From Ponticaulis sp. (GTDB lineage Bacteria; Pseudomonadota; Alphaproteobacteria; Caulobacterales; Hyphomonadaceae): a stretch of DNA of 64,000 bases. The notes under the pieces are model-generated. The model had not been told where the DNA came from, ran no database searches, and saw only the letters and a list, made by a program, of their open reading frames with translations. A program made the position numbers and the translations under genes. Where the stretch lies: contig PBNO01000006.1 in assembly GCA_002723155.1 (NCBI GenBank), positions 834,438 to 898,437 of the forward strand, in the 5' to 3' direction. Shown one piece after another: positions 1-59,380 of this stretch (position 1 is the first letter of the stretch; each line of letters begins with the position of its first letter).

Positions 1-697
1 AGGCCAGAACGTCGGTCGCCTGCGTCCGGCAAAGACGCGCCATCACGGTACGCGACTCGGCCCAGCCAACTGCGCTGATTGTATAAAAACGGTTGTCCCT
101 GTCGTTGAAGACGAGCCCTGCAGAATAGCTGGTGCCGGCATTCCGCCCCGCTGACATCTCATGATAGAGGGTCAGGTGATCAAAATGCGTAACGTAGCCG
201 CTGCGCTCAATTTTATAGAACAGCGTCATACCGCGCGTGCCAACAGCAACCACCTCACCGGTGGCCTGAATGCTTCCGGCCTCCCAGCTTGGCATGCCAA
301 TGGCAGTTGGGCAGAAGGACGTCCAGGTCAGCTCTTCCAGCGATGTCTGCGCGTTGATCGGGTCCGAGAACACCAGGAGGCCTCGACACTCATCAGCGCT
401 GGCAGAACGGCCCAGTTCGCGGGACAGGCTCAAAACGACACGCCCGGTTGCGGTCATCGTAATGCCGCGTACACGGTCGTCTGGACCAATCAGTCCGCCG
501 TCTTGTGTCGTCAGATTTTCCAGACTGGTTCGCGCCAGATTGGCTTGCGAGCCGGTCATAGCCTGAAGCTGCTGAAGCAGGTTTTCTGCTGACGGCGTAT
601 ACTCATCAGGGCCGAGTGCATGCGCAGGGCTCACGCCCATTGCGGGCATAAGGACTGCAGCACACGCCGCCATCAGGTGTTTCATTGGTGATTTCAT
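1..697 (-). CDS. secreted propeller-like protein, partial (C-terminus beyond window)
   Basis: The frame is open from an ATG at 697 to the window edge, so the 3' end is missing. A GGAGGAC Shine-Dalgarno lies about 4 nt before the start. The N-terminus (MKSPMKHLMAACAAVLMP, then a cleavage-like AHA) is a Sec signal peptide. The readable part is clearly paralogous to the N-terminal half of the next gene (782-3277): both carry GITMTA-GR-V-LSLSR, then a Cys-GLL segment, a SIQA-GEV-VGT segment, and N-DNRFY-INA-G near the end. The N-terminal halves look like repeated beta-strand/propeller units, but I do not recognise the family. It lies in tandem with its paralogue, separated by a terminator. Exported and likely extracytoplasmic; function unknown. 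Confidence 0.8.
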   Translation of the reverse strand, partial: MKSPMKHLMAACAAVLMPAMGVSPAHALGPDEYTPSAENLLQQLQAMTGSQANLARTSLENLTTQDGGLIGPDDRVRGITMTATGRVVLSLSRELGRSASADECRGLLVFSDPINAQTSLEELTWTSFCPTAIGMPSWEAGSIQATGEVVAVGTRGMTLFYKIERSGYVTHFDHLTLYHEMSAGRNAGTSYSAGLVFNDRDNRFYTISAVGWAESRTVMARLCRTQATDVLA

Positions 698-729
698 AAG
701 GTCCTCCGCGTGCGTCCCCACGCACTCGC

Positions 730-773
730 AAAAAAGGGACACCAGCCGACGTGAAGGGCGTGTCGGCTGGTGT
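730..773 (-). terminator. rho-independent terminator after the 782-3277 gene
   Basis: A perfect 12-bp inverted repeat (739-750 against 762-773) with an 11-nt loop is followed on the minus strand by six T (730-735). It lies 9 nt beyond the stop at 782 and ahead of the paralogous gene starting at 697, so the two paralogues probably have separate transcripts or only partial read-through. Confidence 0.85.
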
Positions 774-781
774 CAGTCAGG

Positions 782-3277
782 CTAAAGGTCGAATTCCCAA
801 TAGGTCCGGCAGGTGTTCTCGTAGGCGTGTCCCTGCCAGCTGCCATGCGCATCGCTTTCCTGTGTAGATAGGCACCAGCCGGAGTCGTTGCTGGCACCCA
901 GCACCTTCACCTCGACGCCATCGCGTTCAACGAAGATTTGATCGAGCATAGCGCCATCGCTACCCGCGGTATGGATCTGCAGATAACGCGGCGTACCGGT
1001 GACGATCGTATCCCACTCCATATCGCGGCAAATCGGGAGAATTGGCGCGTTCGTATCTTCCTGGAAGGAACTCCGGCCGATCTCACGGCGGTTAGAGTCG
1101 AGATACACAGCCGTCAGACGGCTACCCGTACCTTCGTTGTCGATGCCGTCCACGTCACAGTCGATATCCAGCGAATAGCGGTGGGTGGTCGTGTTCCCGC
1201 GCTGTGCGAGAATCCGGTCACGCGGGTTATCAACCGGCAGGTTTGAATAGCTCCAGGTATGTTCAGACGTACACACCCCATCAGCCGCATATTGCCATGA
1301 GCCCTGCCCATCGCTGGCCTCAGTGGACAGACACCAGCCTTTGTCGTTGTTCGCACCGAAGGTCGCGACTTCATCGCCGTTACGGTTGAGGATGATACGG
1401 TCAATCATGAAGGCATCGCCGCCATCGGTACTGATTTTCACGTATTCAGCATCACCATTGGTCGTGGCTTCGATTTCCGGATTCCGCAACATGCAGGCAC
1501 CCTGCGTGAACTGATTGCTGCTTGCCCGGCCGACTTGTTGCCAGTTGCTGTCATAGAAGGTCGCGGTGATGTTGGCACCCGTCCAGTCATTCGTAATGTT
1601 CTCGGTCGAACAGTCGATATTGACGGAATAGCGCTGCGTGGTTCTGATGTCATTCTGAGCGATAATCGCATCGCGCGGGTTCTCAACCGGCAGATTTGAA
1701 TAGCTCCAGGTGTGCTCTGACGTACAGATCCCACCCGCTGCATATTCCCAGCTTCCGCGTCCATCATCAGCGTCGGTCGACAGACACCAGCCACGGTCAT
1801 TGTTCGCACCGAAAGCAGAAATCTCTACACCCTGACGATACATCAGAATGCGGTCGATCATGAACGCGTCAGACCCGTTCGTGCTGATCTTCACATATTC
1901 GGCTTCGCCATTCAGCGTGGCCTCCAATGCCGGATTTCTGATGAAACAAGCGCCATTGGAGATGTCATCGCGTGCCGCACGGCCGAGCTCTCTCCAATTG
2001 CGATCATAGAAGGTCGCTGTGATGGTGTTACCCGTGCCTTCATTGTCGATCCCGTCAGTGGCACAGTCGATCGAGACAGAGTGTTGAACCGCACGCGCGC
2101 CTTCCGGCTCCAGAATCTGGAACGAAAACTCGAGCCCATCAGTCTGAAGCGCGACAGGCGGGTTCTGACGACCTGCCCAGAGCGCAACCATGGTTCCATC
2201 CCTGAGGGTAGACACGCCACCGGCGAAACGGAAGGACGGACGGTTCTGCACACAGGTCTGTATCTGCTGCGTGCGTCCTACATTCTCCTCATAGACAACT
2301 TGCGAAGTCGTATTGCGCCACTGGGAATAGTTGATCCGAGAAACACTCACGATATCAGTGTAGGGTGTCTCTACATCCCAGCCCCGAATAAGCGCCTGCG
2401 CGCCATCAGCCACGCAGCGGCTTTCATACCAGGCGGCTTTTTCTTCCTGACTGATATTCTGATCATCCGGCCACATCTCATCAGATGGGAAAGTATTCAC
2501 CAGATACAGCGTGCCATCATCGTTGAACATCAGGTTGGCGCCCTGTGATGAGATCACTGTATTGAACTCAGTACACTCATTGAATGATGCATTGGTCGCC
2601 AGGTTCGCATGCGGCGCGGTGCGGCACAGTTGGGCCCTGACGGAGCCAACACGTACCTGCCCGCCGGCATTGATCGCGTAGAACCGGTTGTCCGCCGGGT
2701 TAAACGCTACGCCAGATGAATCGCGACCGCCGCGAAAATCTCTCGGGTTTGGAATATATTCCATGTCGAGATGACGGATTCGCTCCATTCTTCCGTTCGG
2801 GTCGATCCGGTAGAAACGGGAACCACGGTGCGTACCGACAATGATCACCTCGCCGACAGCCTGAATGCTGCTCGGATGGTTCTCAGGTGAATCCTCTGCT
2901 GACGGGCAGTAGATTTGCCAGTTCAGGTTCAGATCGGGATTATGGGGGTCAAACGGCGAGGAATACGCCAGCAGCCCGTTGCATGTTGTTGTCGGATCAG
3001 TGCTGCGAGACAGGCTGACAACGATACGGCCAGAGGCCGTCATCGTAATCCCCTGAAGGTGATCTCCTCCGGAGAAGCCCTGTCCATATCGACTGACGAG
3101 GCCATCAATCTCGGTGTTGACCAGCGTCGATGCGCGCCCGCTTATCTGTCGCACCTGATAGAGCACGTCCCGTGATGCTGGCGTGATCTCATCCTGAAGC
3201 CAGGCATGAGCCGCCCCGCTACCTGCCATGGCTCCCAGCAGACTGCCTGCCGCGAGCGCCCAAGTTTTCCATTTCAT
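782..3277 (-). CDS. secreted protein: propeller-like N-terminus plus three ~150-residue Cys-containing repeats
   Basis: 831 residues from ATG 3277, chosen because GGAGGAT lies about 8 nt upstream and a signal peptide (MKWKTWALAAGSLLGAMAG...AHA) begins there; an in-frame start at 3307 would precede the ribosome site. Residues ~30-390 form the propeller-like region shared with the gene at 1-697. Residues ~400-831 are three tandem copies starting near Cys405, Cys556 and Cys707 (spacing 151). Each has an IDC core, a DAFMIDRI-like strand (DGAMLDQI in copy 3), and FGANND-GWCLST followed by GSW. The first two copies end in CTSEHTWSYSNLP. The layout suggests a lectin-like or PLAT-like beta-sandwich, but that is inference and no family is recognised. 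Paired Cys fit disulfides in an exported protein. Divergent from the PAN-domain regulator at 3501. Confidence 0.85.
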   Translation of the reverse strand: MKWKTWALAAGSLLGAMAGSGAAHAWLQDEITPASRDVLYQVRQISGRASTLVNTEIDGLVSRYGQGFSGGDHLQGITMTASGRIVVSLSRSTDPTTTCNGLLAYSSPFDPHNPDLNLNWQIYCPSAEDSPENHPSSIQAVGEVIIVGTHRGSRFYRIDPNGRMERIRHLDMEYIPNPRDFRGGRDSSGVAFNPADNRFYAINAGGQVRVGSVRAQLCRTAPHANLATNASFNECTEFNTVISSQGANLMFNDDGTLYLVNTFPSDEMWPDDQNISQEEKAAWYESRCVADGAQALIRGWDVETPYTDIVSVSRINYSQWRNTTSQVVYEENVGRTQQIQTCVQNRPSFRFAGGVSTLRDGTMVALWAGRQNPPVALQTDGLEFSFQILEPEGARAVQHSVSIDCATDGIDNEGTGNTITATFYDRNWRELGRAARDDISNGACFIRNPALEATLNGEAEYVKISTNGSDAFMIDRILMYRQGVEISAFGANNDRGWCLSTDADDGRGSWEYAAGGICTSEHTWSYSNLPVENPRDAIIAQNDIRTTQRYSVNIDCSTENITNDWTGANITATFYDSNWQQVGRASSNQFTQGACMLRNPEIEATTNGDAEYVKISTDGGDAFMIDRIILNRNGDEVATFGANNDKGWCLSTEASDGQGSWQYAADGVCTSEHTWSYSNLPVDNPRDRILAQRGNTTTHRYSLDIDCDVDGIDNEGTGSRLTAVYLDSNRREIGRSSFQEDTNAPILPICRDMEWDTIVTGTPRYLQIHTAGSDGAMLDQIFVERDGVEVKVLGASNDSGWCLSTQESDAHGSWQGHAYENTCRTYWEFDL

Positions 3278-3500
3278 CTGCAAATCATCCTCCGCCTGCA
3301 TCCCCACACAATGCGTTGGAAGCCTAAGAAGCAGGCAGAGCTTTCCTCAAATGGAGAAACATGAAGAGCGACTTGCAGAAAAATGAAGATGCTTAAAATC
3401 AGGGGGTTACAAACCTGACGCAAAGCCGCGATAACCTCAGTTAAAGTTGCATTGCCACGACATTCGGGTATGGCATGCGCAGCGATCGGGGACTTTTACC

Positions 3501-4220
3501 TTGCCAACCAGAGTGATCTATCAGTTTGATTCTTTCGAACTCGATCCCTCGCGCATGTCCCTTTTGCAGAACGGCGAGCCGGTAAGGCTCGAGCCGCAGG
3601 TCTTCAGGCTACTTCTGTTATTGGTCGAAAATCGTGCCCGCATTGTGCCGCGTGAAGAGATCAATTCGGTCATCTGGGATGGCCGGCTTGTCTCCGATGC
3701 GGCGCTCGCCAGCCGTTTGCGCTCAGCCCGCAGCGCTGTCGGCGATAACGGTTCGGAGCAACGGCTCATCAAGACCATTCCGAATACAGGTCTGCGCTTT
3801 GTAGGAGAGGTTACCGAGAAATCGGTCGAAACCGGCACATCCAGAGCAGTACTAGACTGGGTGAAGCGCTACGGCGTCTTCGCGGCAGGCGGCGTCGTTG
3901 CAAGCGCCGTAGTCGCGGCGGGGATATGGCTCGGTATCACCTATGCTGAAAATCAGGCACTGGAAGCCCAGTATGTGCATACGCCTGACGCGGCAATTTC
4001 CGGGTACAACAACACCCGCTTCTTCTATGTCGACCGACATGATTGCATGCGGCTCTGCATCGAGCAGACAGACTTCGTCTGCCGGTCGTTCGATTACTAT
4101 AATCTGGAAAACGCCTGCGACCTGTCAGAAGAAACCGCCGAAAGCATTGGCGGGCTGAAGACCGACTATGAGCTGCCGCAGTCATATGACCATTACGCCC
4201 GGATTATGCCGGAAGAGTAA
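3501..4220 (+). CDS. membrane-bound winged-helix regulator with periplasmic PAN/Apple domain (CadC/ToxR-like)
   Basis: About 239 residues. Residues ~5-103 are an OmpR/PhoB-type winged helix (YQFDSFELDPS, LEPQVFRLLLLLVEN, RLIKTIPNTGLRFVG), as in CadC/ToxR one-component regulators. Residues ~125-148 are one transmembrane helix. Residues ~170-235 match the PAN/Apple pattern: C-MRLC, then VCRSFDYY, then CDLSEE and a terminal YDHYARI, with four Cys at ~182, 186, 194 and 206. Topology would put DNA binding in the cytoplasm and PAN in the periplasm, where such domains bind protein or carbohydrate. TTG 3501 is preferred because GGGGA lies 8 nt upstream; TTG 3447 and GTG 3513 are alternatives. Divergent from the secreted-protein gene at 782-3277, which it may control (inference). 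Confidence 0.8.
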   Translation: MPTRVIYQFDSFELDPSRMSLLQNGEPVRLEPQVFRLLLLLVENRARIVPREEINSVIWDGRLVSDAALASRLRSARSAVGDNGSEQRLIKTIPNTGLRFVGEVTEKSVETGTSRAVLDWVKRYGVFAAGGVVASAVVAAGIWLGITYAENQALEAQYVHTPDAAISGYNNTRFFYVDRHDCMRLCIEQTDFVCRSFDYYNLENACDLSEETAESIGGLKTDYELPQSYDHYARIMPEE

Positions 4221-16184: not shown

Positions 16185-18761
16185 ATGATAACGATGAGTC
16201 TCGAGAGGCGCTTCACGCAATTCCTGATCGCGTCGACAGTGCTGGCCATTCTTGCAACCGCATTTACCGCTGCCGTCAGCGTAAACTGGCATGTGCGCCA
16301 TCAACAGAGCAGCGCTCTGGCAGACTACATGTCCGAACGCGGCCTCAGAGAAGATGCATTTTTCAATACCGTTGCCGACTCCCAGAACGCTGCAATGCAA
16401 ACCTTCAACGAGTATGTTGAAGGCTTGACCGAAGCAGAAATCCAGACCGGGCTCGACACCTATTTCCCGCTACAGGAAAATGGTGCGCGCCGTGGTACAG
16501 ATGAGCTGTTCGAAGGTGTGTTTATTCCGGGCTATGGCCGTGTTTACGGCATCGCAGCGCTGGGCAGTTCCACACACGAATGGACGCCAGCGCGCGAGCG
16601 CACCTTCTACTCGGCCTTCCTGACAATCGCCCGCCACGGCGTTGCCATGAACGACACCCACGAGAGCCTCTGGTTCATGTCGCCACTGGACGATCTGATC
16701 ATTTTTGCGCCTAACCGTCCGGACCGGCTGGAATACTATCGCCATGAAGCGCCCCATGATTTCAGCGCAACAAGCATCGGCATTGGCGATGTGTCAGAGC
16801 CTGATGTGAACCCGGAAGGGCGCACACGCTGCACGCCTCTTATGAGCGCGGCTTACGACCAGACCGGCGAAACTCTTGTCACAGGTTGCCAGACCCCACT
16901 TCGCCAGTTTGGCGGCGGACAGGTCGGTATCTTTGGCACGACAATGTTCGTCAACGAGGTGTTCCAGGCGGCATTTGATTCGCTGCCGAACATGGACTCC
17001 GATATCTACTTCATTTCGGCTGAAGGGCAGCTGATCGCGCACCATGATATTGATGAGACGATTGATGTTCGCCCCGCGCTAATGCGTGAAATGGAAGAAC
17101 GTATCGATCCAGAGGAACTTCTGGAGACGTTTCAGAACACCAGCTCGGGCAGCGACGTCTTCTTCCGTAACCCTGAGCATTTTGCCTCCGAAGCCATCGC
17201 CTTTTATCACCTCGAAATTCCAGACTGGTATCTGGTCATTTCGATACCGGAACAAACTCTGCTTTACGCATCGCTCAACCAGCTCGTACCAATCTTCATC
17301 ATGTCGCTCACGGTTGGTGCCTGCGTCATTATCGGCATGACGATCTTTGTGCGCCGCGTCGCATTGAAACCGCTAGGCATTTTGACGCGATCACTCCACG
17401 CGCCTGCGGGGGCAACCGGCGACATGGATCATCAGATCGATGAACTCACAGAACGCAGAGACGAGATTGGCCAGCTTGCAAGCACGCTCGCAGATTTTCG
17501 AAATCGCACCGAAGCCTACACGTCCAAACTGGAAGACACGGTTGCACAACGTACCGAAAAGCTGCGCCGCCTGAGCGAAGCTAAGTCTACGTTCCTTGCG
17601 ACAATGAGCCATGAATTGCGCACGCCGATGAACGGCATTCTGGGCGTTTCAGGCGCACTCAATCGCACAGACCTCACGACCGAACAGTCTGAGATGGTGG
17701 AGCTCATCCAGCAGTCTACGCAAATGCTGGAGCGGCAGCTGTCGGACGTTCTGGATGTATCCAAAGTTGAAGCCGGCAAACTTGAGCTTATCAGGAACCC
17801 TACCAATCTCGCATCCTGCGTGACGGAACTATGTGATTTCCATCGCCACACAGCCAGGGAACGCGGGCTGGACCTCAATCTCAATTTTGATGTCTCGGCA
17901 CATGGATATTTCCTGGCTGATGAAGTCCGCATCCGGCAGGTGTTGAACAATCTCATCACCAACGCGATCAAGTTCACCAGCGAAGGCTCGGTCACGATCG
18001 ATGTCAGCGGCGGCGAGTATCTTGATGTCACGCGGCAGGTGGTCAGCTTCAAAGTCACAGACACTGGCGTTGGCATGAACGCAGAAAGCCTTGCGCAGAT
18101 CTTCGAGCCATATGCTCAACCGACGAAAAACGTTGCCGAAACAAACCGCGGCACGGGTCTCGGCCTGACCATCTCGAAATCGCTCGTAGAGCTGATGAAA
18201 GGCGAAATCATGGCGCGGTCCCACCCGGGACATGGCAGCGTGTTCGCGTTCGAAATCCCGCTCGTTCGTTGTCAGACACAAAACCCTTCGCTGACGCCTG
18301 TATCGGAAGAGGCTGAAGCGCTTGCCGACCATTTGTCATCCACGCGCGTCCTGCTCGCTGAAGATCACCCGGTCAACCAGCGTGTTGTACAACTCATCCT
18401 TAAACCGCTGGGTGTCGACGTTGAGATTGTCGAGAACGGTCAGGACGCTGTCGAAGCCTATAAGAATGGCAGTTATGATGTCATCCTGATGGATATGCGC
18501 ATGCCGGTGATGGATGGTCTGGTAGCCACCCGCCAGATTCGTGAAATCGAAAGCAATGAGAACCGGGGCCACACCCCAATTCTGGTACTCAGCGCAAATG
18601 CCATGCCCGAACACTGCGACCAGTCCATGATGGCCGGGGCAGATATGCATGTCGGCAAGCCGTTAACACCGGAGCGCCTGATTGATGCCGTCCGCGAAGG
18701 CCTGGAATTGAAAGCCGAAGGGAGCGGTGCCAGCGAGCGTTCAAGCTCCCAACGCGCCTGA
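16185..18761 (+). CDS. membrane hybrid sensor histidine kinase (periplasmic sensor-HAMP-HisKA-HATPase-REC)
   Basis: 858 residues; GAGGA lies 8 nt before ATG 16185. TM1 ~14-36, a large periplasmic dCACHE-like sensor ~37-370 ([33 protein letters not shown]), TM2 ~372-394 and HAMP. HisKA has His476 in [18 protein letters not shown]. HATPase motifs are [18 protein letters not shown] and GTGLGLTIS. The C-terminal receiver has Asp770 in [14 protein letters not shown]. Ligand and partner are unknown. It is not CckA, which carries PAS domains rather than a periplasmic sensor. It lies directly upstream of divL, separated by a CtrA box. Confidence 0.9.
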
Positions 18762-18776
18762 AACCGTAAACATTCA

Positions 18777-18791
18777 TTAACGGGACATTAA
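18777..18791. promoter_or_regulatory. predicted CtrA-binding site upstream of divL
   Basis: TTAA, seven bases (CGGGACA), TTAA is an exact match to the full CtrA box. It lies in the 103-bp gap between the hybrid kinase and divL, 74 bp before the divL start. Binding is inferred from the motif. Confidence 0.65.
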
Positions 18792-18864
18792 CTGAAACCG
18801 GTCATTTCGTTAAAGTGGCGGAATCTGAAAAGATTCGGCGACTTGTTCGAGACGGAGCGGCTTT

Positions 18865-21306
18865 ATGGCGTTTAGTGCAGATCAGATACCAGTCATGGTG
18901 GCTGTCGGAGCTTCAGCTCTGGCGCTGTCTTCCATGCTTTGGTCGCTACGCGTTACAGACGGCCATCGCGGCGCGGCACGCAAATTCCGCCAGCGCGCAG
19001 ATACCTCCGAAGAACAACTCATTCGCGCCGAAAGCATTTTTGACGCCCATCCGGGCATTATTCTCGTCTGGGAAGATGACGCGCTGGACGGCGACGAGGT
19101 CGGCTCCCCTGTCGTTTACGGATCGCCCGTGGCGCTAGCCGGCCTGCTCAGATTTACAGATGACTCGCTCTCAAACGATCCGGCTATCCGGATTGTCGAA
19201 GGCCTTGCTGATTTGGAGGCACGTGACGCATCCGGCAAAGACACAACACTACGCCAGCGCCTGCGGGAACTCCGCCTCTCCGGGTCACCATTTTCGCTGA
19301 CGCTGATTGGCCCATCAGGCCGTTTTCTTGAAGCTGATGGCCGCACGGCGGGTGCGCGCGCGGTCATGTGGCTGACGGACTCCACGATTAAAGGTCTTGA
19401 AGAAAGCTCGGCGCGCTTCCGCATTGAAGAAGCCCGTCAGGTCGTTGCACGTGACCCGACTGCCTTTCTCGACATGCTCTCCAAAGCGCCTTTCCCGGCG
19501 TGGCGTCTTTCCGGCACCGGCCGTCTACAATGGGCGAACAGCGCATATCTGACCGCTGTTGAAGCGCGTAACCTCGACTCCGCGCTTGAGAAGCAAATCC
19601 ACCTCGACTCGCAGGTGAATGATCAGGTCAAATCCACGCTGGAAAGCAATTCGGAAATTTCCGAAACACGCCAGATTTCAGTAAACGGCGAACGCCGTTC
19701 CATGCGCGTGCTCACCTTCCCGCTCTCTGGCGGCGCTGGCGCGATGGCGTTCGACGTTACCGACGAAGTCGATGCGCAGGAAACCCTGACCCGTCACGTG
19801 CGTGCGCACGATGAAACGCTGAACCATATCGATGAAGGTGTGGCGATTTTCGGCGGCGACCGCCGCCTCGTCTACTTCAACCGCGCTTTCTCAAAAATGT
19901 GGGATCTGAAAGACAGCTTCCTCATCGAAAAGCCGAGCCATGGTCAGGTTCTCGACGAGCTCCGCGCAGGCCGCAAACTGCCAGCCCGCGCCAATTTCGG
20001 CGAATGGCGCGCTGAAGAGCTGGCGCATTACCAGATGAAATCGTCCACCGCCGAGGATATCTGGCGTCTGCCGGATGGCCGCACGCTGAAAGTGACCCGC
20101 CAGCATCACCCGCTGGGCGGTCTGCTTATCCTGTTCAAAGACATGACGGACGAGCTGGCCCTTGAGAGCAAATACAAAATGCTTATCAAGACGCAGACAG
20201 CGACGCTCAACAATCTGCACGAGGCTGTCACCGTGTTCGGCCCGGATGGCCGCCTACGCCTGCACAACGAAGCCTTCATGCGCCTGTGGGAACTCGACGC
20301 AAAAGACCTTCAGGGCGAGGTGGATTACAACCACCTTTCAGGGCTGTGTACCAAGCTGTTCCACGATCAGGACACATGGGCCAATATTAAAGGCCATATC
20401 ACCAACCCGTCTTCCGAAGCGCGCCGCGAAACAACCGGCGAGATGAAACGCTCTGACGGCAGTGTGGTGACCTATCTCACTCAGCCTCTGCCAGATGGCG
20501 CAACTCTGGTCGCGTTTGTCGACATGACAGCTGCCCGCCGTGTGGAAGAAGCGCTCCGCGAGCGCGCAGAAGCCTTTGAAGCGGCTGACAAGCTGCGTAC
20601 AGAGTTCGTGCGCAATGTCAGCTATCAGCTACGCTCACCGCTGACGACCATTCTTGGCTACACGCAGTTCCTTGAGAGCGGTCAGGTTGGCGAGCTGAAC
20701 GAGCAGCAATCAGGCTTTGTGGATTCAATCCTCACAGCCTCCAACAACCTCTCCAAGCTGATCGACGACATTCTCGATCTGGCGATGATTGAGGCCCGCC
20801 GTCTCGACCTCGACATCTCGTCCGTCGACCTGAAAGAGGTTGTGAACGACAGCATCAACATGATGGTGTCGAACGCCGAAGACACAGAGGTCGAAGTTGT
20901 CTGCGAACTGCAGCCTGACCTTGGCACGATGATGGCCGACGAGCGCCGCCTGCGTCAGATCCTGTTCAATCTGATGACCAATGCGATGCGCTTCACGGAC
21001 TCGGGCGGCAAGATCACCATCGAAGCTCACAAACAGGACGATATGGTCTGGCTTTCTGTCTCCGATACGGGCGCTGGTATCGAATACGACCAGCAAGCCT
21101 CCGTGTTTGACAGCTTTGCATCCGGCGACCGCCGCGGCGCAGGCCTCGGCCTTGCTCTGGTCCGCTCTTTCGTAGAGCTGCATGGCGGCCAGGTGATGAT
21201 GCAATCAGCCCCTGGTGAAGGCACACGCGTTATCTGCATGATGCCAGCCGATGCCTCGGGCGCAGTACCGCAAGGCGATGACGACGAAATTCGCTCAGCT
21301 GCGTAG
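18865..21306 (+). CDS. divL: DivL, atypical tyrosine-type histidine-kinase-like cell-cycle regulator
   Basis: 813 residues. An N-terminal membrane segment (~9-27) is followed by PAS-like domains (~200-300, 310-420, 440-550), a HisKA-like helix and an HATPase domain. The phospho-acceptor position is Tyr587 in VRNVSYQLRSPLTTILGY instead of His, the hallmark of DivL. ATPase motifs NLMTNAMRFTDSGG, DTGAGIE and AGLGLALVRSFVELHGG are present. In Caulobacter, DivL binds DivK and sets CckA kinase activity and hence CtrA phosphorylation at the new pole. GACGGAG precedes ATG 18865. Probably CtrA-regulated through the box at 18777. Confidence 0.93.
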   Translation: MAFSADQIPVMVAVGASALALSSMLWSLRVTDGHRGAARKFRQRADTSEEQLIRAESIFDAHPGIILVWEDDALDGDEVGSPVVYGSPVALAGLLRFTDDSLSNDPAIRIVEGLADLEARDASGKDTTLRQRLRELRLSGSPFSLTLIGPSGRFLEADGRTAGARAVMWLTDSTIKGLEESSARFRIEEARQVVARDPTAFLDMLSKAPFPAWRLSGTGRLQWANSAYLTAVEARNLDSALEKQIHLDSQVNDQVKSTLESNSEISETRQISVNGERRSMRVLTFPLSGGAGAMAFDVTDEVDAQETLTRHVRAHDETLNHIDEGVAIFGGDRRLVYFNRAFSKMWDLKDSFLIEKPSHGQVLDELRAGRKLPARANFGEWRAEELAHYQMKSSTAEDIWRLPDGRTLKVTRQHHPLGGLLILFKDMTDELALESKYKMLIKTQTATLNNLHEAVTVFGPDGRLRLHNEAFMRLWELDAKDLQGEVDYNHLSGLCTKLFHDQDTWANIKGHITNPSSEARRETTGEMKRSDGSVVTYLTQPLPDGATLVAFVDMTAARRVEEALRERAEAFEAADKLRTEFVRNVSYQLRSPLTTILGYTQFLESGQVGELNEQQSGFVDSILTASNNLSKLIDDILDLAMIEARRLDLDISSVDLKEVVNDSINMMVSNAEDTEVEVVCELQPDLGTMMADERRLRQILFNLMTNAMRFTDSGGKITIEAHKQDDMVWLSVSDTGAGIEYDQQASVFDSFASGDRRGAGLGLALVRSFVELHGGQVMMQSAPGEGTRVICMMPADASGAVPQGDDDEIRSAA

Positions 21307-21379: not shown

Positions 21380-22762
21380 GTGAGCGCAAGTTTCTTTCCC
21401 ATGACATCTACATCCCTGCTTCGCCTTGGGCTTCTCACATTCTTTCTGAGCTTCCTCAGCCCGTTATCGCTGCAGGCGCAGGATGCCTCTCAAACCGATG
21501 CGCCCATTTCGCTTGAAGAAGGCGTACCCGACGATGCAGCTATCCTCGAACGGATAGACGATATCTTTGCCCAAATTGAATCGCTTCAAGGCATCGAAGC
21601 CAGTGTTCAGTCAGGGGTGGTGACGCTTTCAGGCACGACAACGAATGCTGATGCGATGGATCTTGCCGAAACCCTCTCTTCGCGCGTTGAGGGCGTCGTT
21701 GCCGTTCAGAACCAAGTCATCCGTGATGCGTCAGTTTCCAACCGCGTCACGCCGGCCATGGACGCCGCGCGCGGGCAGATCGAAGCCTTCATCCGCTATA
21801 TTCCGCTCTATGCTCTGGCGCTCGGTGTATTCGCGCTCATCCTTATGGGCGGGTGGCTTCTATCGCGCGCGCAATTCATCTGGCGCACTATTTCGCCCAA
21901 CCGGTTTGTCGCCGATCTGATTTCCACCTTCGTGTTCACGATCGCCTTCATCATCGCCATGATTTCAGCGCTGAGCCTGATCGGCGCGACAGCCTTTCTC
22001 GGCACGCTGCTCGGTGCAGCGGGCGTGGTGGGGCTCGCCATCGGTTTTGCGGTCAAAGACACGATCGAGAATTTCACCGCATCAGTCATGCTGTCTATTC
22101 GCCAGCCCTTCCAGCCGAATGACCACGTCGTGATCAATGGCGAAGAAGGCCGGGTGATCCGCCTGACATCACGCGCCACGATCCTGATGACACTGGATGG
22201 CAATCATCTTCGCATTCCGAACGCCAATGTCTTCAAAGGCGTCATTCTGAATTATTCGCGCAATCCGGACCGTCGTTTCAGCTTCATGCTTGGTATTGAT
22301 CCTGAACAGGACGAGATGGAAGCCGCATCGCTTGGGCAGGCGACACTCGAAAAGCTGGATTTTGTGCTCGCCGATCCGCCTGCGGTCGGCCTGATCAAAG
22401 AGCTAGGCGCCTCAACAACCGATCTTTCCTTCAATGGATGGGTCGATCAACGCGATACCGATTTCAACAAAGCGCGTTCGGCTGCGATCTCTGCGGTCAA
22501 AACTGCGCTGGAAGCCGCTGGCTTCAGCCTGCCGGACCCGAGCTATCGTATCTCCATTAAAGGCGGCTCAGCCCTTCCGACCCAGCCTGTTTCAGCCATT
22601 GTGGAAGAAGTGGACACACCTGAGGAAACACCTGAGCCCGAGAAGGCCCCGGACGTACCGGATACCTCGCCCGATACCTCGCTTCAGGAACGCGTCGACG
22701 CAGAGCGCCGCGCCAAAGGTGAGGATGATCTTCTAGGCAATGGCGGCGCAAGCGAGCTCTGA
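21380..22762 (+). CDS. BON-domain MscS-family mechanosensitive channel
   Basis: 460 residues from GTG 21380 (ATG 21401 is an alternative). A signal-like N-terminus ends SLQAQ. A BON domain (~50-115; ASVQSGVVTLSGTTTNADAMDLAETLSSRVEGV) is followed by three TM helices (~142-235), with the pore helix GTLLGAAGVVGLAIGFAVKD, then the MscS beta domain (PFQPNDHVVINGEEGRVIRLTSRATIL) and alpha/beta domain. The C-terminus is a Pro/Glu/Asp-rich tail. Releases solutes on osmotic downshock. The periplasmic BON fusion suggests membrane or matrix tethering. Confidence 0.9.
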   Translation: MSASFFPMTSTSLLRLGLLTFFLSFLSPLSLQAQDASQTDAPISLEEGVPDDAAILERIDDIFAQIESLQGIEASVQSGVVTLSGTTTNADAMDLAETLSSRVEGVVAVQNQVIRDASVSNRVTPAMDAARGQIEAFIRYIPLYALALGVFALILMGGWLLSRAQFIWRTISPNRFVADLISTFVFTIAFIIAMISALSLIGATAFLGTLLGAAGVVGLAIGFAVKDTIENFTASVMLSIRQPFQPNDHVVINGEEGRVIRLTSRATILMTLDGNHLRIPNANVFKGVILNYSRNPDRRFSFMLGIDPEQDEMEAASLGQATLEKLDFVLADPPAVGLIKELGASTTDLSFNGWVDQRDTDFNKARSAAISAVKTALEAAGFSLPDPSYRISIKGGSALPTQPVSAIVEEVDTPEETPEPEKAPDVPDTSPDTSLQERVDAERRAKGEDDLLGNGGASEL

Positions 22763-25038: not shown

Positions 25039-26565
25039 CTATAGCGCGCGGTAGACCCGCATAATCTCGGCGCGAACGCGTGTTATACATGCCTCGAACT
25101 CGTCAATGACGAGCTTTTTCGAGAACACGCCAATCTCTCCGAGGCGAATACCCTGATCTGTATAGCGCAGCTGCACAGACTTTCCGACAATCTCATCTGA
25201 TGGTGCGACCACGCTCAAAGTAATCTTCTCGCCGCGGACCTCGGCAAGCCCGACAGCGTCCCCACCAAACCGGATAAGATGCTCCCCATCATGGCGGAGT
25301 TTTTTCAGTTCACCGTCAAGGCTTTGAAGATGCTCAATGACTGTATCTGCAGAATGCGCGAGCTCTACCCCATCCGCGACGAAGGTCATGAAGCAGACAT
25401 CCTGATTGCACGCTTCGCGTAGCTCCGCCCGCTTCAGGATTTCAGACCGGTAGCCACGCGCCAACGCTAAAGGCGCATCCATTTCCGGTGAAAAGCTGAT
25501 CGCAAAGCGCTGCGATGGCGCCTCCACGGCCGGCTCAAGGACCGGCTCCGGCGCAGGCGCTTCCGCCGGAGGAGCAACCTCAACAGGCGCAGCCGCCTTC
25601 ACCGACTGCGTATTCATCGAATAGCGCATCGCAACATTAGCCCGCTCATACTTGACGGCATACTTTTCCATTATGATCGCGTCATGGCGAAAGCCGAATT
25701 TCTCATAGAGATGGATCGCCGCTTCGCATTTCTTGTTCGTGAGCAGGTGCAGCTTCTGAACACCCATCTCACGCGCCCGATTGATCAGCGCAACCAGCAG
25801 GAATTCACCTGCCTTCTCTCCCCGCTTTGTCGACGACACGCCCATTTTGGTGAACTCGAACGCACCATCTTCGCCAACAGGCTGCAATGCGCCAGCGCCG
25901 ATGATATCGCCGCTCGAATTTCGGACGAACAGAATGTCACCGCCCTTATCTATGATGTGGCTCTGAGGGTCTTGCAGGACTTCAATATCCGAGGGCTCGA
26001 GAACAAACATATCCTCAATCCACTCGGCATTCAGGCGATAAAAATCAGGCGCAAGTTCTGGCGTATAAGGCACGATCTCCAGCCCGCTTTCAGGATGAAT
26101 ACGCTCTGTCAGCGGGCGTTCTTCCAGGCGGCGTTCAATCTCAGTCAGCTGGTCAATGACATCCCCAGATACATTACGCGTTATGTTTTTAGCCGCGCAC
26201 TCGATCTGCAGCCAGGCCGTCGACTTCAGATGCGCCACAAGGCAGATGCCATCTTCTGTCAGAGCAACATTGCGGACACGCTGATCATCATCGTCGGCCG
26301 TCAGCCGGACGAGCCCTTTGTCTGCCATCCCCGCCACAGTCCGCGTAATTGCGGGCTGTGAGATACCAATCAGCTCAACAAGCTGGCCGATTGTTGCGTC
26401 TCCATGCAGGTCCAGCGCCGCCAGCACCGTATTGAACGCAGGCAGGAGCTTTCCGTGTCCGTTGGCTTCGAAGATTTTCGTCGCATCAGCCTGCATTCGC
26501 TCGGCCAGCCGCTTCATACGGCTACCCAGAAACAGATAATTCTTTTGCGAGAGGACATCCAGCAT
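25039..26565 (-). CDS. MarR-GNAT fusion protein with extra C-terminal X domain
   Basis: 508 residues from ATG 26565 (MLDVLSQKNYLFLGSRMKR). Residues ~1-150 are a MarR winged helix (TIGQLVELIGISQPAITRTVAGMADKGLV, DDDQRVRNVALTEDG). Residues ~160-310 are a GNAT acetyltransferase (AEWIEDMFVLEPSD, GALQPVGEDGAFEFTKMGV, KLHLLTNKKCEAAIHLYEKFGF). Residues ~320-345 are a Pro/Ala/Glu linker. Residues ~345-508 are domain X, unrecognised, repeated as the next gene. MarR-GNAT fusions are known; the third domain looks unusual. Probably autoregulated through the palindrome over its start. Ligand and acetylation substrate unknown. Confidence 0.85.
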   Translation of the reverse strand: MLDVLSQKNYLFLGSRMKRLAERMQADATKIFEANGHGKLLPAFNTVLAALDLHGDATIGQLVELIGISQPAITRTVAGMADKGLVRLTADDDDQRVRNVALTEDGICLVAHLKSTAWLQIECAAKNITRNVSGDVIDQLTEIERRLEERPLTERIHPESGLEIVPYTPELAPDFYRLNAEWIEDMFVLEPSDIEVLQDPQSHIIDKGGDILFVRNSSGDIIGAGALQPVGEDGAFEFTKMGVSSTKRGEKAGEFLLVALINRAREMGVQKLHLLTNKKCEAAIHLYEKFGFRHDAIIMEKYAVKYERANVAMRYSMNTQSVKAAAPVEVAPPAEAPAPEPVLEPAVEAPSQRFAISFSPEMDAPLALARGYRSEILKRAELREACNQDVCFMTFVADGVELAHSADTVIEHLQSLDGELKKLRHDGEHLIRFGGDAVGLAEVRGEKITLSVVAPSDEIVGKSVQLRYTDQGIRLGEIGVFSKKLVIDEFEACITRVRAEIMRVYRAL

Positions 26566-26600
26566 AACGCATTCCCATATCATGTTATATAATGCGTTAT
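26564..26600. promoter_or_regulatory. palindromic MarR-type operator overlapping the start of the MarR-GNAT gene
   Basis: Perfect 10-bp arms ATAACGCATT (26564-26573) and AATGCGTTAT (26591-26600) are separated by 17 bp, with AT-rich sequence between. The left arm covers the ATG, so bound protein would block transcription or initiation. Autorepression is inferred, as is usual for MarR proteins. Confidence 0.65.
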
Positions 26601-26651
26601 CTTTATGAATCTGGGAGCGCAAGCAGAATTTATACGCCCTGTGATTTTAGT

Positions 26652-57529: not shown

Positions 57530-57670
57530 CCCAGCTCCTTCTCTATGCCGTCCCAGGCGCTCGTCGTTCTTTAACAAGACCATAACGGGGAAACTACAAC
57601 CTTTAAAGGCGACTTTCATGTGACCTTAAGCGGACAGGAGTATGATAATCCCTTAAAAAGCAGGTGGGTT

Positions 57671-59380
57671 ATGGGCGGTCGCGAAACACATTTCGAACTT
57701 TTTCTGAGAAAATCGCCCAAAGCGAGCTGGGCATTGGTCGATGCGATTCCGAATCGCCAGAAAGCCATTGAGCGCGCAAACGCTTTTCTTAAGAGCCATC
57801 CGCAAGGTGGCGTGAAGGTTATGAAGGAAGAGCGCAAAGGCGCAAATGGTGATTATATCGCCATTCTTGTTGCTGCGCTGGGCGACTGTGAAGAGCCGCG
57901 CAAGCGGCCATCTCGCACCTTCATTCCGCAACAGACGTCTTCATGTGTATCTGCAGGCGACCTTCGCAAAGTCTCGGCACGCAAAACCTATCTGGAAGTC
58001 ATTCCGCGCTTCCTTGAACGCCACCGCGTTCTGCCGGGCGAGCTGATCTATCGAACGGACCTTCTGGAAATTCTGGAAAGCTCCGGCTCTGAAATCACGC
58101 AAGCTATTCAGCGTGTCGCGATCGCGCGTGCGGGCGAAGAAAGCCTGCATGCGATTGCGCGCCAATTGCACGAACTGGTCAATCAGGGCGTCAACAGCAT
58201 CTTCAAAGAGAAGAAAGCCGGACGCTTTGTGAAATACGAAGGCACGCTCGACGACGTCGTGAAGAAATGCCGTCAAAAGCCAAACCTCCTGACCGCCTTC
58301 AAGTCCGCTCTGGCAGACCGGCTCATGCGTGAGACGAGCTGGCCTAAAAAGCTGACCGGCCTTGTCGAGATCTGGAAAGAGGCCGAAACGCTTGAAGAAG
58401 CTGATCGAAAATTCGTCAACGAAGTCCTGACAGATTACTTCTCCGAGTGGATCGATACCCCGGGTGCAGTGAGCGCCATTCTGGGCGAGACGCAAAACAC
58501 TGGCGAAGTTGTCGACCGCCTGATCGGCGTACTTGAGCCCCGCCCTGACAGACGTAATACACGTGACCCGCTCCATGATCTGCCTCATGCGCAAGCGCTC
58601 GCTGAGGCAGTCCAGCTGGGCCTTTTGCCGACGGCGTCACAGACAATCGTATCGCGAATTTTCGAGCATATCGGCTCAAACCACCGCCTTTATGAGAAAT
58701 GCCTGCTGACCGAATTCAACATGCTGAAGGATTTCGGTGACCGCCTTGTCAAAATCATGAAATCCAACCGCCACGCAGAAATGTATGACTCTTTCTGCGC
58801 ACGCTCCAAGCGCCTCATGTCGACGGACACGGTTGACGGCTATCTGGAGCGGTTTGAAATTCTGGATCGTCCGATGCAGCTCCTCAAATTGCAGGATAAT
58901 CTCGTTGGCTACGATGCCCGCACGAAAATGATTACACTGCTACGTGGCATGATCGGTCAGCCACGCTTCGAAGAAGCGGTCATGAACAATGACGGACGGC
59001 ATGTGCAGGTTCTAATGACGCTACGCGCGACGCAAGCCGCGCTTTTAAAATCCGACCTGCCTGAGGCAGAGCGTATTCATGGTGCGCAGGATTTAGACGC
59101 TCTCGGCGTCCGCCTGATTTCGAATGCCAAGCTGTTCCCGTCGGTCGCCCGCAAGGCTGGCTCTCCGGCTCTGGCGGCAGTTGCGCTATTCCGCCTTGCC
59201 GCCGAGGCGCTTCCGAAGGGGCAGAGCTCGACACTGGCCGCCATGTCCGCGACTAAAATGCTGAAAGAGCAGGACGCACGCGAAGCGCTGAAAACCAACC
59301 CTGACCTTAGCCGGATGCTACGCGAACTGTCTCAGGCAGCCCGCGCCGCCACGGAACTCCCTAAAGCCTCTGAAGGCTGA
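57671..59380 (+). CDS. large hypothetical protein divergent from chvI
   Basis: 569 residues from ATG 57671 (MGGRETHFELFLRKSPKASW); GTG 57620 is in frame upstream. N-terminal ~70 residues are a small alpha/beta module (ERANAFLKSHPQGGVKVMKEERKG...GDYIAILVAALGD). The remaining ~480 are almost wholly helical, with repeated LxxLLE/helix patterns. No signal peptide, no TM, no catalytic motif. Probably conserved in Caulobacterales; function unknown. Its stop abuts the TlpA-like stop. Confidence 0.78.
   Translation: MGGRETHFELFLRKSPKASWALVDAIPNRQKAIERANAFLKSHPQGGVKVMKEERKGANGDYIAILVAALGDCEEPRKRPSRTFIPQQTSSCVSAGDLRKVSARKTYLEVIPRFLERHRVLPGELIYRTDLLEILESSGSEITQAIQRVAIARAGEESLHAIARQLHELVNQGVNSIFKEKKAGRFVKYEGTLDDVVKKCRQKPNLLTAFKSALADRLMRETSWPKKLTGLVEIWKEAETLEEADRKFVNEVLTDYFSEWIDTPGAVSAILGETQNTGEVVDRLIGVLEPRPDRRNTRDPLHDLPHAQALAEAVQLGLLPTASQTIVSRIFEHIGSNHRLYEKCLLTEFNMLKDFGDRLVKIMKSNRHAEMYDSFCARSKRLMSTDTVDGYLERFEILDRPMQLLKLQDNLVGYDARTKMITLLRGMIGQPRFEEAVMNNDGRHVQVLMTLRATQAALLKSDLPEAERIHGAQDLDALGVRLISNAKLFPSVARKAGSPALAAVALFRLAAEALPKGQSSTLAAMSATKMLKEQDAREALKTNPDLSRMLRELSQAARAATELPKASEG

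What the first reader, a model, noticed from the sequence alone, without database searches (positions are those of the whole stretch)
3501..4220. One-component membrane regulator with a periplasmic PAN/Apple domain
Seen: an OmpR-type winged helix, one TM helix and a C-terminal region with the PAN cysteine pattern (C-x3-C, VCRSF, C, DHYAR). Known: CadC/ToxR regulators carry varied periplasmic sensors, and PAN domains bind proteins or glycans. Inference: the regulator senses a protein or polysaccharide and controls the divergent secreted-protein genes. This pairing is not one I know as described.
Basis: partly seen in the sequence, partly recalled or inferred. Interest (0 to 1): 0.72.

Follow-up and report, generated by a model that had tools for sequence, protein, structure and literature searches.

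The report
Membrane gene regulator with PAN sensor
A marine bacterium carries a membrane-anchored gene switch whose outer part is a PAN domain, a module best known from animal blood proteins, and it sits beside, and probably controls, secreted proteins that in one relative carry the same module.

Summary
ORF 3501-4220(+) has an OmpR-type winged helix, one TM segment and a PAN_1 domain, both domains above Pfam's cut-offs. It is PAN rather than Apple: only four cysteines.

Added evidence: (1) Of all 105 genomes held of the family, 5 have the intact regulator and one a remnant. (2) The divergent secreted-protein gene, of an undescribed family, is intact in 4 of 150 genomes searched, each time directly divergent from this regulator; G006 has the regulator alone. 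(3) In G028, another genus, the secreted protein itself begins with the same PAN domain (54% identical to its regulator's). (4) The intergenic region holds TCTTCAT direct repeats; their 16-bp core is exact once per genome in three genomes, each time at this locus. (5) PAN and wHTH are conserved, the linker-TM is not.

Best reading: a CadC/ToxR-like one-component regulator whose periplasmic PAN senses a ligand, perhaps one its targets also bind, and which acts from the repeat array on the secreted operon. Ligand, sign and DNA binding are inferred. No description of a PAN-bearing regulator was found. New variant of a known kind.

The parts
3501..4220 (+). wHTH-TM-PAN regulator, 239 aa, TTG start
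   Evidence: orthologues in four other genomes
3573..3797 (+). OmpR/PhoB-type winged helix (residues 25-99)
   Evidence: Pfam Trans_reg_C
3876..3932 (+). single hydrophobic, presumed transmembrane segment (residues 126-144)
   Evidence: hydropathy 2.11
3972..4163 (+). PAN_1 domain (residues 158-221), four cysteines; the conserved block of the subfamily runs on to about residue 234
   Evidence: Pfam PAN_1
3351..3389 (-). operator-like array of four TCTTCAT-type direct half-sites, spacing 10-12-10 bp (0, 2, 0 and 1 mismatches)
3322..3350 (-). promoter-like TTGAGG-N17-TTAGGC that abuts the array; the P. koreensis counterpart is TTGAGA-N17-TTAGGC. Weak: the consensus scan found no promoter here
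   Evidence: sequence; negative scan
782..3277 (-). secreted protein, 831 aa from ATG 3277 with a signal-peptide-like N-terminus (or 841 aa from GTG 3307); three copies of a 131-133 aa domain without a Pfam match
   Evidence: the signal peptide is judged by eye
1..742 (-). 5' part of the gene of a 562-aa secreted paralogue; it continues left of the window, followed by a 353-aa paralogue
   Evidence: L075 7492-9180 and 6367-7428

Best explanation
A CadC/ToxR-like one-component transmembrane transcription regulator whose periplasmic sensor is a PAN domain. Shown by sequence: winged helix, one TM segment, PAN; a lineage-restricted pairing with a divergent operon-like run of secreted proteins; a conserved direct-repeat array between them with a spacing that suits a tandemly bound OmpR-type winged helix (that suitability is recalled knowledge). 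Inferred: a ligand (glycan or protein) bound by PAN in the periplasm changes the dimer state, winged-helix pairs occupy the array, and the secreted genes, whose ATG lies 73 nt beyond it, are activated, with possible autoregulation. The PAN in the G028 secreted protein suggests that sensor and product recognise the same kind of ligand.
For: Domains over cut-off in 5 of 5 orthologues. Intact secreted gene in 4 of 150 genomes, all four divergent from the regulator, in two genera. Same PAN in the G028 secreted protein, PAN_1 E 2.2e-8, 54% identical to its regulator's PAN. Exact 16-mer TCTTCATATTTCTTCA once per genome in G001, G005 and G028, each at the locus; G002, G003 and G004, same genus without the regulator, have 2-mismatch hits only. 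Words of 16 and 17 bp shared across genera against a maximum of 14 in 2000 Markov pairs. PAN 90% and wHTH 87% identical against 37% for the linker-TM, window to P. koreensis; dN/dS 0.07, 0.05, 0.24. The regulator's PAN is the only one over the cut-off in its genome.
Against: No ligand, no binding data, no usable structure. G006 keeps the regulator without the secreted gene. The Ponticaulis secreted proteins have no PAN, so the shared domain rests on one locus. The window's own array is imperfect (two 2-mismatch copies), and its intergenic region shares only an 8-bp word with G028's, as chance gives. A promoter scan found nothing there, so the sign of control is open. Charge around the TM is not uniformly positive-inside.
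Confidence: 0.58

Rival explanations
1. Secretion feedback: the PAN domain binds the locus's own secreted proteins while they pass the periplasm, and the regulator adjusts their synthesis.
For: Tight pairing with the secreted genes; PAN domains can bind proteins (recalled); PAN in both partners in G028 would allow like-with-like contact.
Against: The regulator is kept without the partner in G006. No contact was tested.
Confidence: 0.17
2. Redox or folding sensor: the two presumed disulfides of PAN report the periplasmic thiol state.
For: All four cysteines are invariant in the seven PAN sequences of A3. A redox-relevant disulfide in CadC is the subject of PMC3096576 (search listing only).
Against: The same cysteines are kept in the PANs of presumed secreted proteins (G028, G105), where they fit a structural role; conservation runs over the whole domain, not only the cysteines.
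Confidence: 0.09
3. The repeat array is bound by another OmpR/PhoB-type regulator (for example as a Pho-box-like site), and the PAN regulator controls other genes or none here.
For: The direct-repeat layout resembles PhoB boxes (recalled); other winged-helix proteins exist in the genome.
Against: In the eight genomes searched, 4 of the 5 exact or 1-mismatch places lie at the PAN regulator's locus, the G006 orphan's included; the fifth (G006:C106) lies inside a reading frame; none occurs in the three genomes without the regulator. A global box should recur.
Confidence: 0.1

Closest known systems
CadC/ToxR-type transmembrane transcription regulators (TTRs)
   Same: N-terminal OmpR-type winged helix, one TM segment, C-terminal presumed periplasmic sensor. 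Single-pass TTRs are about 56% of 50,302 TTRs in PMC10269533 (Results part 1 read). The nearest winged helices in relatives that were checked carry TPR or alpha/beta-hydrolase parts instead (three checked with Pfam).
   Different: The sensor is PAN_1. PAN as a domain is not named in the main text of PMC10269533 or PMC9214523; the supplementary domain table of the former could not be read.
Clostridium thermocellum RsgI anti-sigma factors
   Same: Idea only: a membrane regulator whose outer module is related to modules of the secreted proteins it controls. RsgI6-GH10 is 57% identical to Xyn10D, and RsgI C-terminal modules bind polysaccharides (PMC4711584, passages).
   Different: RsgI acts through a sigma factor in a Gram-positive; here one chain would bind DNA itself, the sensor is PAN and the ligand is unknown. 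Not homologous as far as tested.
VtrA/VtrC and ToxR/ToxS co-component systems
   Same: OmpR-type winged helix, TM, periplasmic domain (PMC9214523, passages).
   Different: No co-transcribed membrane-tethered lipocalin-like partner follows the gene; the sensor fold differs.
Plasminogen and HGF PAN (N) domains
   Same: PAN core with the four cysteines aligned; profile hits: plasminogen E 1.3e-5, HGF E 0.058 and weaker.
   Different: Animal extracellular proteins without a regulatory role that I know.

Membership tests
CadC/ToxR-type transmembrane transcription regulator | N-terminal OmpR/PhoB-type winged helix | tested here: met
   Trans_reg_C 44.5 bits, cut-off 26.2; 5 of 5 orthologues pass
CadC/ToxR-type transmembrane transcription regulator | single TM segment between the winged helix and the sensor | tested here: met
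   One segment at that place in 5 of 5; G006 also has a hydrophobic stretch inside its winged helix
CadC/ToxR-type transmembrane transcription regulator | sensor in the periplasm | tested here: inconclusive
   Four conserved Cys fit an oxidising compartment; K/R bias around the TM is clear in 2 of 5, weak in 1, absent in 2
CadC/ToxR-type transmembrane transcription regulator | controls promoters directly from the membrane | not testable with these tools
   Only a conserved array in the divergent region
PAN_1 (PF00024) | profile score over the curated cut-off | tested here: met
   36.6 bits against 21.4; 5 of 5 orthologues pass
PAN_1 (PF00024) | four core cysteines | tested here: met
   Cys 182, 186, 194, 206, invariant in the seven sequences of A3, aligned with plasminogen's
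Apple domain | third disulfide joining the N- and C-terminal ends (recalled) | tested here: not met
   The protein has only four cysteines
VtrA/VtrC-type co-component system | membrane-tethered partner gene overlapping or directly downstream | tested here: not met
   Mechanical ORFs of 50 aa or more near the regulator stop in the five loci show no TM-like stretch (highest 1.25, threshold 1.6); in the window purH follows convergently
RsgI-type anti-sigma factor | N-terminal part that binds a sigma-I factor | tested here: not met
   The N-terminus is a DNA-binding winged helix

The most novel reading that the evidence does not exclude
A self-matched sensor-effector pair in a Gram-negative bacterium: the regulator's periplasmic PAN and the PAN of the secreted protein it controls descend from one domain and bind the same ligand, so the cell samples with a membrane-held copy what its exported copy will bind; in Ponticaulis the effector has lost, or never gained, its PAN.
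Probability: 0.3. Interest if true: 0.68.

Novelty: new variant of a known kind. Interest (0 to 1): 0.52.

Why it matters
PAN domains are studied mostly in eukaryotes (recalled). Here one appears to be the input of a one-chain signalling protein with a compact predicted operator and one predicted target operon, so the ligand of a bacterial PAN domain could be found with a reporter screen. If sensor and product share the ligand, the locus would be a Gram-negative, directly DNA-binding parallel to the RsgI principle, in which a regulator carries a relative of the module its products use.

Tried and rejected
Structure: AlphaFold2 of the regulator (2 sequences, mean pLDDT 37.3) and of the 841-aa protein (3 sequences, 42.6) are too poor to use. 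Foldseek of the second listed many beta-propeller entries and a pancreatic-lipase-related entry (1bu8), query TM-scores 0.08-0.16 in the 50 rows shown; a lead only (propeller-like N-part, sandwich-like repeats).

Function of the secreted protein: no Pfam match (841 aa), no NCBIfam match. PDB sequences: none with the whole-protein profile, two rows at E 1 and 1.1 with the repeat profile. PHROGs: weak rows, best E 0.0019. The repeat profile is found in 3 of 200 genomes of the order: own, G028 and the G034 remnant (G001 and G005 are not among its listed rows).

Other wHTH-PAN proteins: PF00024 rang in 47 of 398 genomes of the phylum, own included, and in 0 of 14 controls at E 0.001; at E 1 it rang in 4 of 14 controls, none over the cut-off. 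Of the 52 listed places I held DNA for 38 (30 loci and 8 more in stretches); 14 were not looked at. Among the fetched loci the winged-helix model hit no PAN frame but those of this regulator family. Limits: about 1.5 kb of flank, so frames of 1810-1964 aa (33 of the 52) were seen in part; the model came from close relatives of this regulator.

Regulon: of the 32 motif places within 2 mismatches in 8 genomes, 6 are at the regulator loci; of the other 26 I opened 4. Two lie inside reading frames (G006:C106, G000:C4); two in G028 (C30, C33) lie about 16-20 bp before called ORFs that by eye look like an ammonium transporter and a Nudix-type protein, neither like the secreted family. No further target is claimed.

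Plasmids: 121 records match, none over 80% of the query; the 15 shown match the winged helix only.

Papers: searches found 0 papers; one search found 6, on plants or fungi by title; two searches listed 20 of 81 and 20 of 1,312, none of the listed with the phrase 'PAN domain'. Most subscription journals are not held.

Slips: alignment A1 had a truncated G005 row; A4 replaces it. The K/R figures for G006 refer to the wrong segment; one search replaces them.

Full report
What is there. The frame 3501-4220(+) encodes 239 aa from a TTG start. Pfam finds Trans_reg_C at residues 25-99 (E 1.7e-11) and PAN_1 at 158-221 (E 4.1e-9), both above their curated cut-offs. Hydropathy shows one TM-like segment, 126-144, and all four cysteines lie in the PAN part. 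A profile of seven related PAN domains hits plasminogen's PAN in the PDB at E 1.3e-5 with the four cysteines aligned. That PAN lies in the periplasm is inferred: the K/R bias around the TM is clear in the window and G028, weak in G005 and absent in P. koreensis and G006.

Who has it. The genome is a Ponticaulis or close kin: G001, listed as same genus, has a contig of exactly the length of the P. koreensis DSM 19734 contig of L038 and carries the closest regulator. In 150 genomes (own included) the full-length protein is in the window genome, G001 (77%), G005 (65%), G006 (49%) and G028 (47%, another genus). The PAN profile matches 7 of 398 genomes of the order, 6 of 105 of the family, all that are held, and 3 of 385 of the class. 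Besides the five regulators these are the G028 secreted protein, two G105 proteins (274 aa; 1080 aa with two PANs), a 335-aa protein of G742, a short frame in G528 and a remnant in G066. The G066 remnant matches the G028 regulator's PAN over 62 residues (45%, E 4e-8) and lies between homologues of the G028 locus's neighbours; ahcY is nearby in G028, G006 and G066, whereas the window, G001 and G005 have the locus by purH. I read this as descent with losses and one relocation. The winged helices of the five PAN regulators form one clade (support 0.93), so the architecture probably arose once among those sampled. PAN_1 in a phylum sample rang in 47 of 398 genomes and 0 of 14 controls; 33 of the 52 listed places are in frames of 1810-1964 aa. 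Among the places whose DNA I held (38 of 52), none but the window's own showed a winged helix (limits in Tried and rejected).

The partner. The divergent gene encodes a secreted-looking protein of 841 aa from GTG 3307, more likely 831 aa from ATG 3277, behind GGAGGA and with a signal-peptide-like start. It has three copies of a 131-133 aa domain without a match in Pfam, NCBIfam or PDB sequences. Two paralogues (562 and 353 aa) follow on the same strand, mostly outside the window; G005 has a matching set of three. Homologues occur in 5 of 150 genomes: intact in G000, G001, G005 and G028, and a 43-residue C-terminal remnant in G034. In all four intact cases the gene is directly divergent from the regulator. 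G006 has the regulator without the partner.

The shared domain. In G028 the secreted protein carries a PAN domain at its N-terminus (residues 35-105, PAN_1 E 2.2e-8), 54% identical to its own regulator's PAN and 48-51% to the other regulators'. On a small tree it sits next to the regulators with weak support (0.39 and 0.67), so the direction of transfer cannot be told. The secreted proteins of the window, G001 and G005 have no PAN hit, and the regulator's PAN is the only one over the cut-off in the window's genome. So this link rests on one locus.

The operator. Between the two genes of P. koreensis, G005 and G028 there is an exact TCTTCATATTTCTTCA; G006 has TCTTCAGATTTCTTCA upstream of its regulator; the window has two copies with two mismatches each, 22 bp apart. 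By half-sites the window and G005 have four at spacing 10-12-10; P. koreensis has the first, second and fourth in that register; G028 and G006 have a pair at 10. The exact 16-mer occurs once per genome in G001, G005 and G028, at the locus. G006 has two 1-mismatch places, one at the regulator and one inside a reading frame. G002, G003 and G004, which lack the regulator, have 2-mismatch places only. With 2 mismatches each genome has 3-5 places, against 0-2 for the reversed pattern. In the window there are 3 places within 3 mismatches against 0.37 expected; 1 of 100 shuffles reaches 3; two of the three are these. The motif was found in these same sequences, so the fairer test is the shared word across genera: 16 bp (P. 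koreensis-G028) and 17 bp (G005-G028) against at most 14 in 2000 Markov pairs modelled on the first pair. The window itself shares only 8 bp with G028, which is chance level, and G006 11 bp, a length reached in 54 of those 2000 pairs. The array ends directly at TTGAGG-N17-TTAGGC (TTGAGA-N17-TTAGGC in P. koreensis), 73 nt before ATG 3277 and 111 nt before the regulator's TTG. That position suits activation of the secreted genes, but the promoter scan found nothing, so the sign is open.

Selection. Window against P. koreensis: PAN 90%, wHTH 87%, linker-TM 37% identical; dN/dS 0.07, 0.05, 0.24. Against G005: 82, 70 and 28%; dS is high or not computable in several cells. A sensor kept as strictly as the DNA-binding part, while the linker drifts, is what a working receptor would show.

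Mechanism. Shown: architecture, pairing, array, conservation. Inferred: topology, ligand binding, dimer control, DNA binding at the array, activation, shared ligand. Rivals: feedback from the secreted products, redox input through the disulfides, another OmpR-type protein on the array; each has a bench test.

Known or new. The class is known (CadC/ToxR-type TTRs; PMC10269533, abstract and Results part 1 seen). A PAN input was not found in print, and PAN as a domain is not named in the main texts searched; the supplement with the domain table could not be read. The nearest idea in function is RsgI of C. thermocellum (PMC4711584, passages). I file it as a new variant of a known kind: a known architecture with a new sensor.

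Noticed in passing
L071 5287-8529 (G105): A 1080-aa secreted-looking protein ends in two PAN domains of the same type, with a weak VWA7_N hit; a second G105 protein (L070 8063-8887, 274 aa) starts with one.
   Followed up: partly
L066 6227-7429 (-) and 7642-9273 (+); L061 3405-4625 (-) and 4949-6472 (+): Two winged-helix proteins related to this regulator stand divergently side by side in G037 and G040; the L066 one on the minus strand fuses the winged helix to an alpha/beta hydrolase.
   Followed up: no
window 25039-26622 (-): One 527-aa frame holds both MarR and GNAT acetyltransferase domains.
   Followed up: no
window 57620-59380 (+): 586-aa open frame without a Pfam match at E 1e-5.
   Followed up: no
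window 16185-21306 (+): Two adjacent large histidine kinases, 858 aa with a receiver domain and 813 aa with PAS folds, followed by a BON-mechanosensitive channel gene at 21380-22762.
   Followed up: no
L076 8935-9066 (G034): A remnant of the secreted protein's last repeat, in a 50-aa open frame, with no regulator found beside it.
   Followed up: partly
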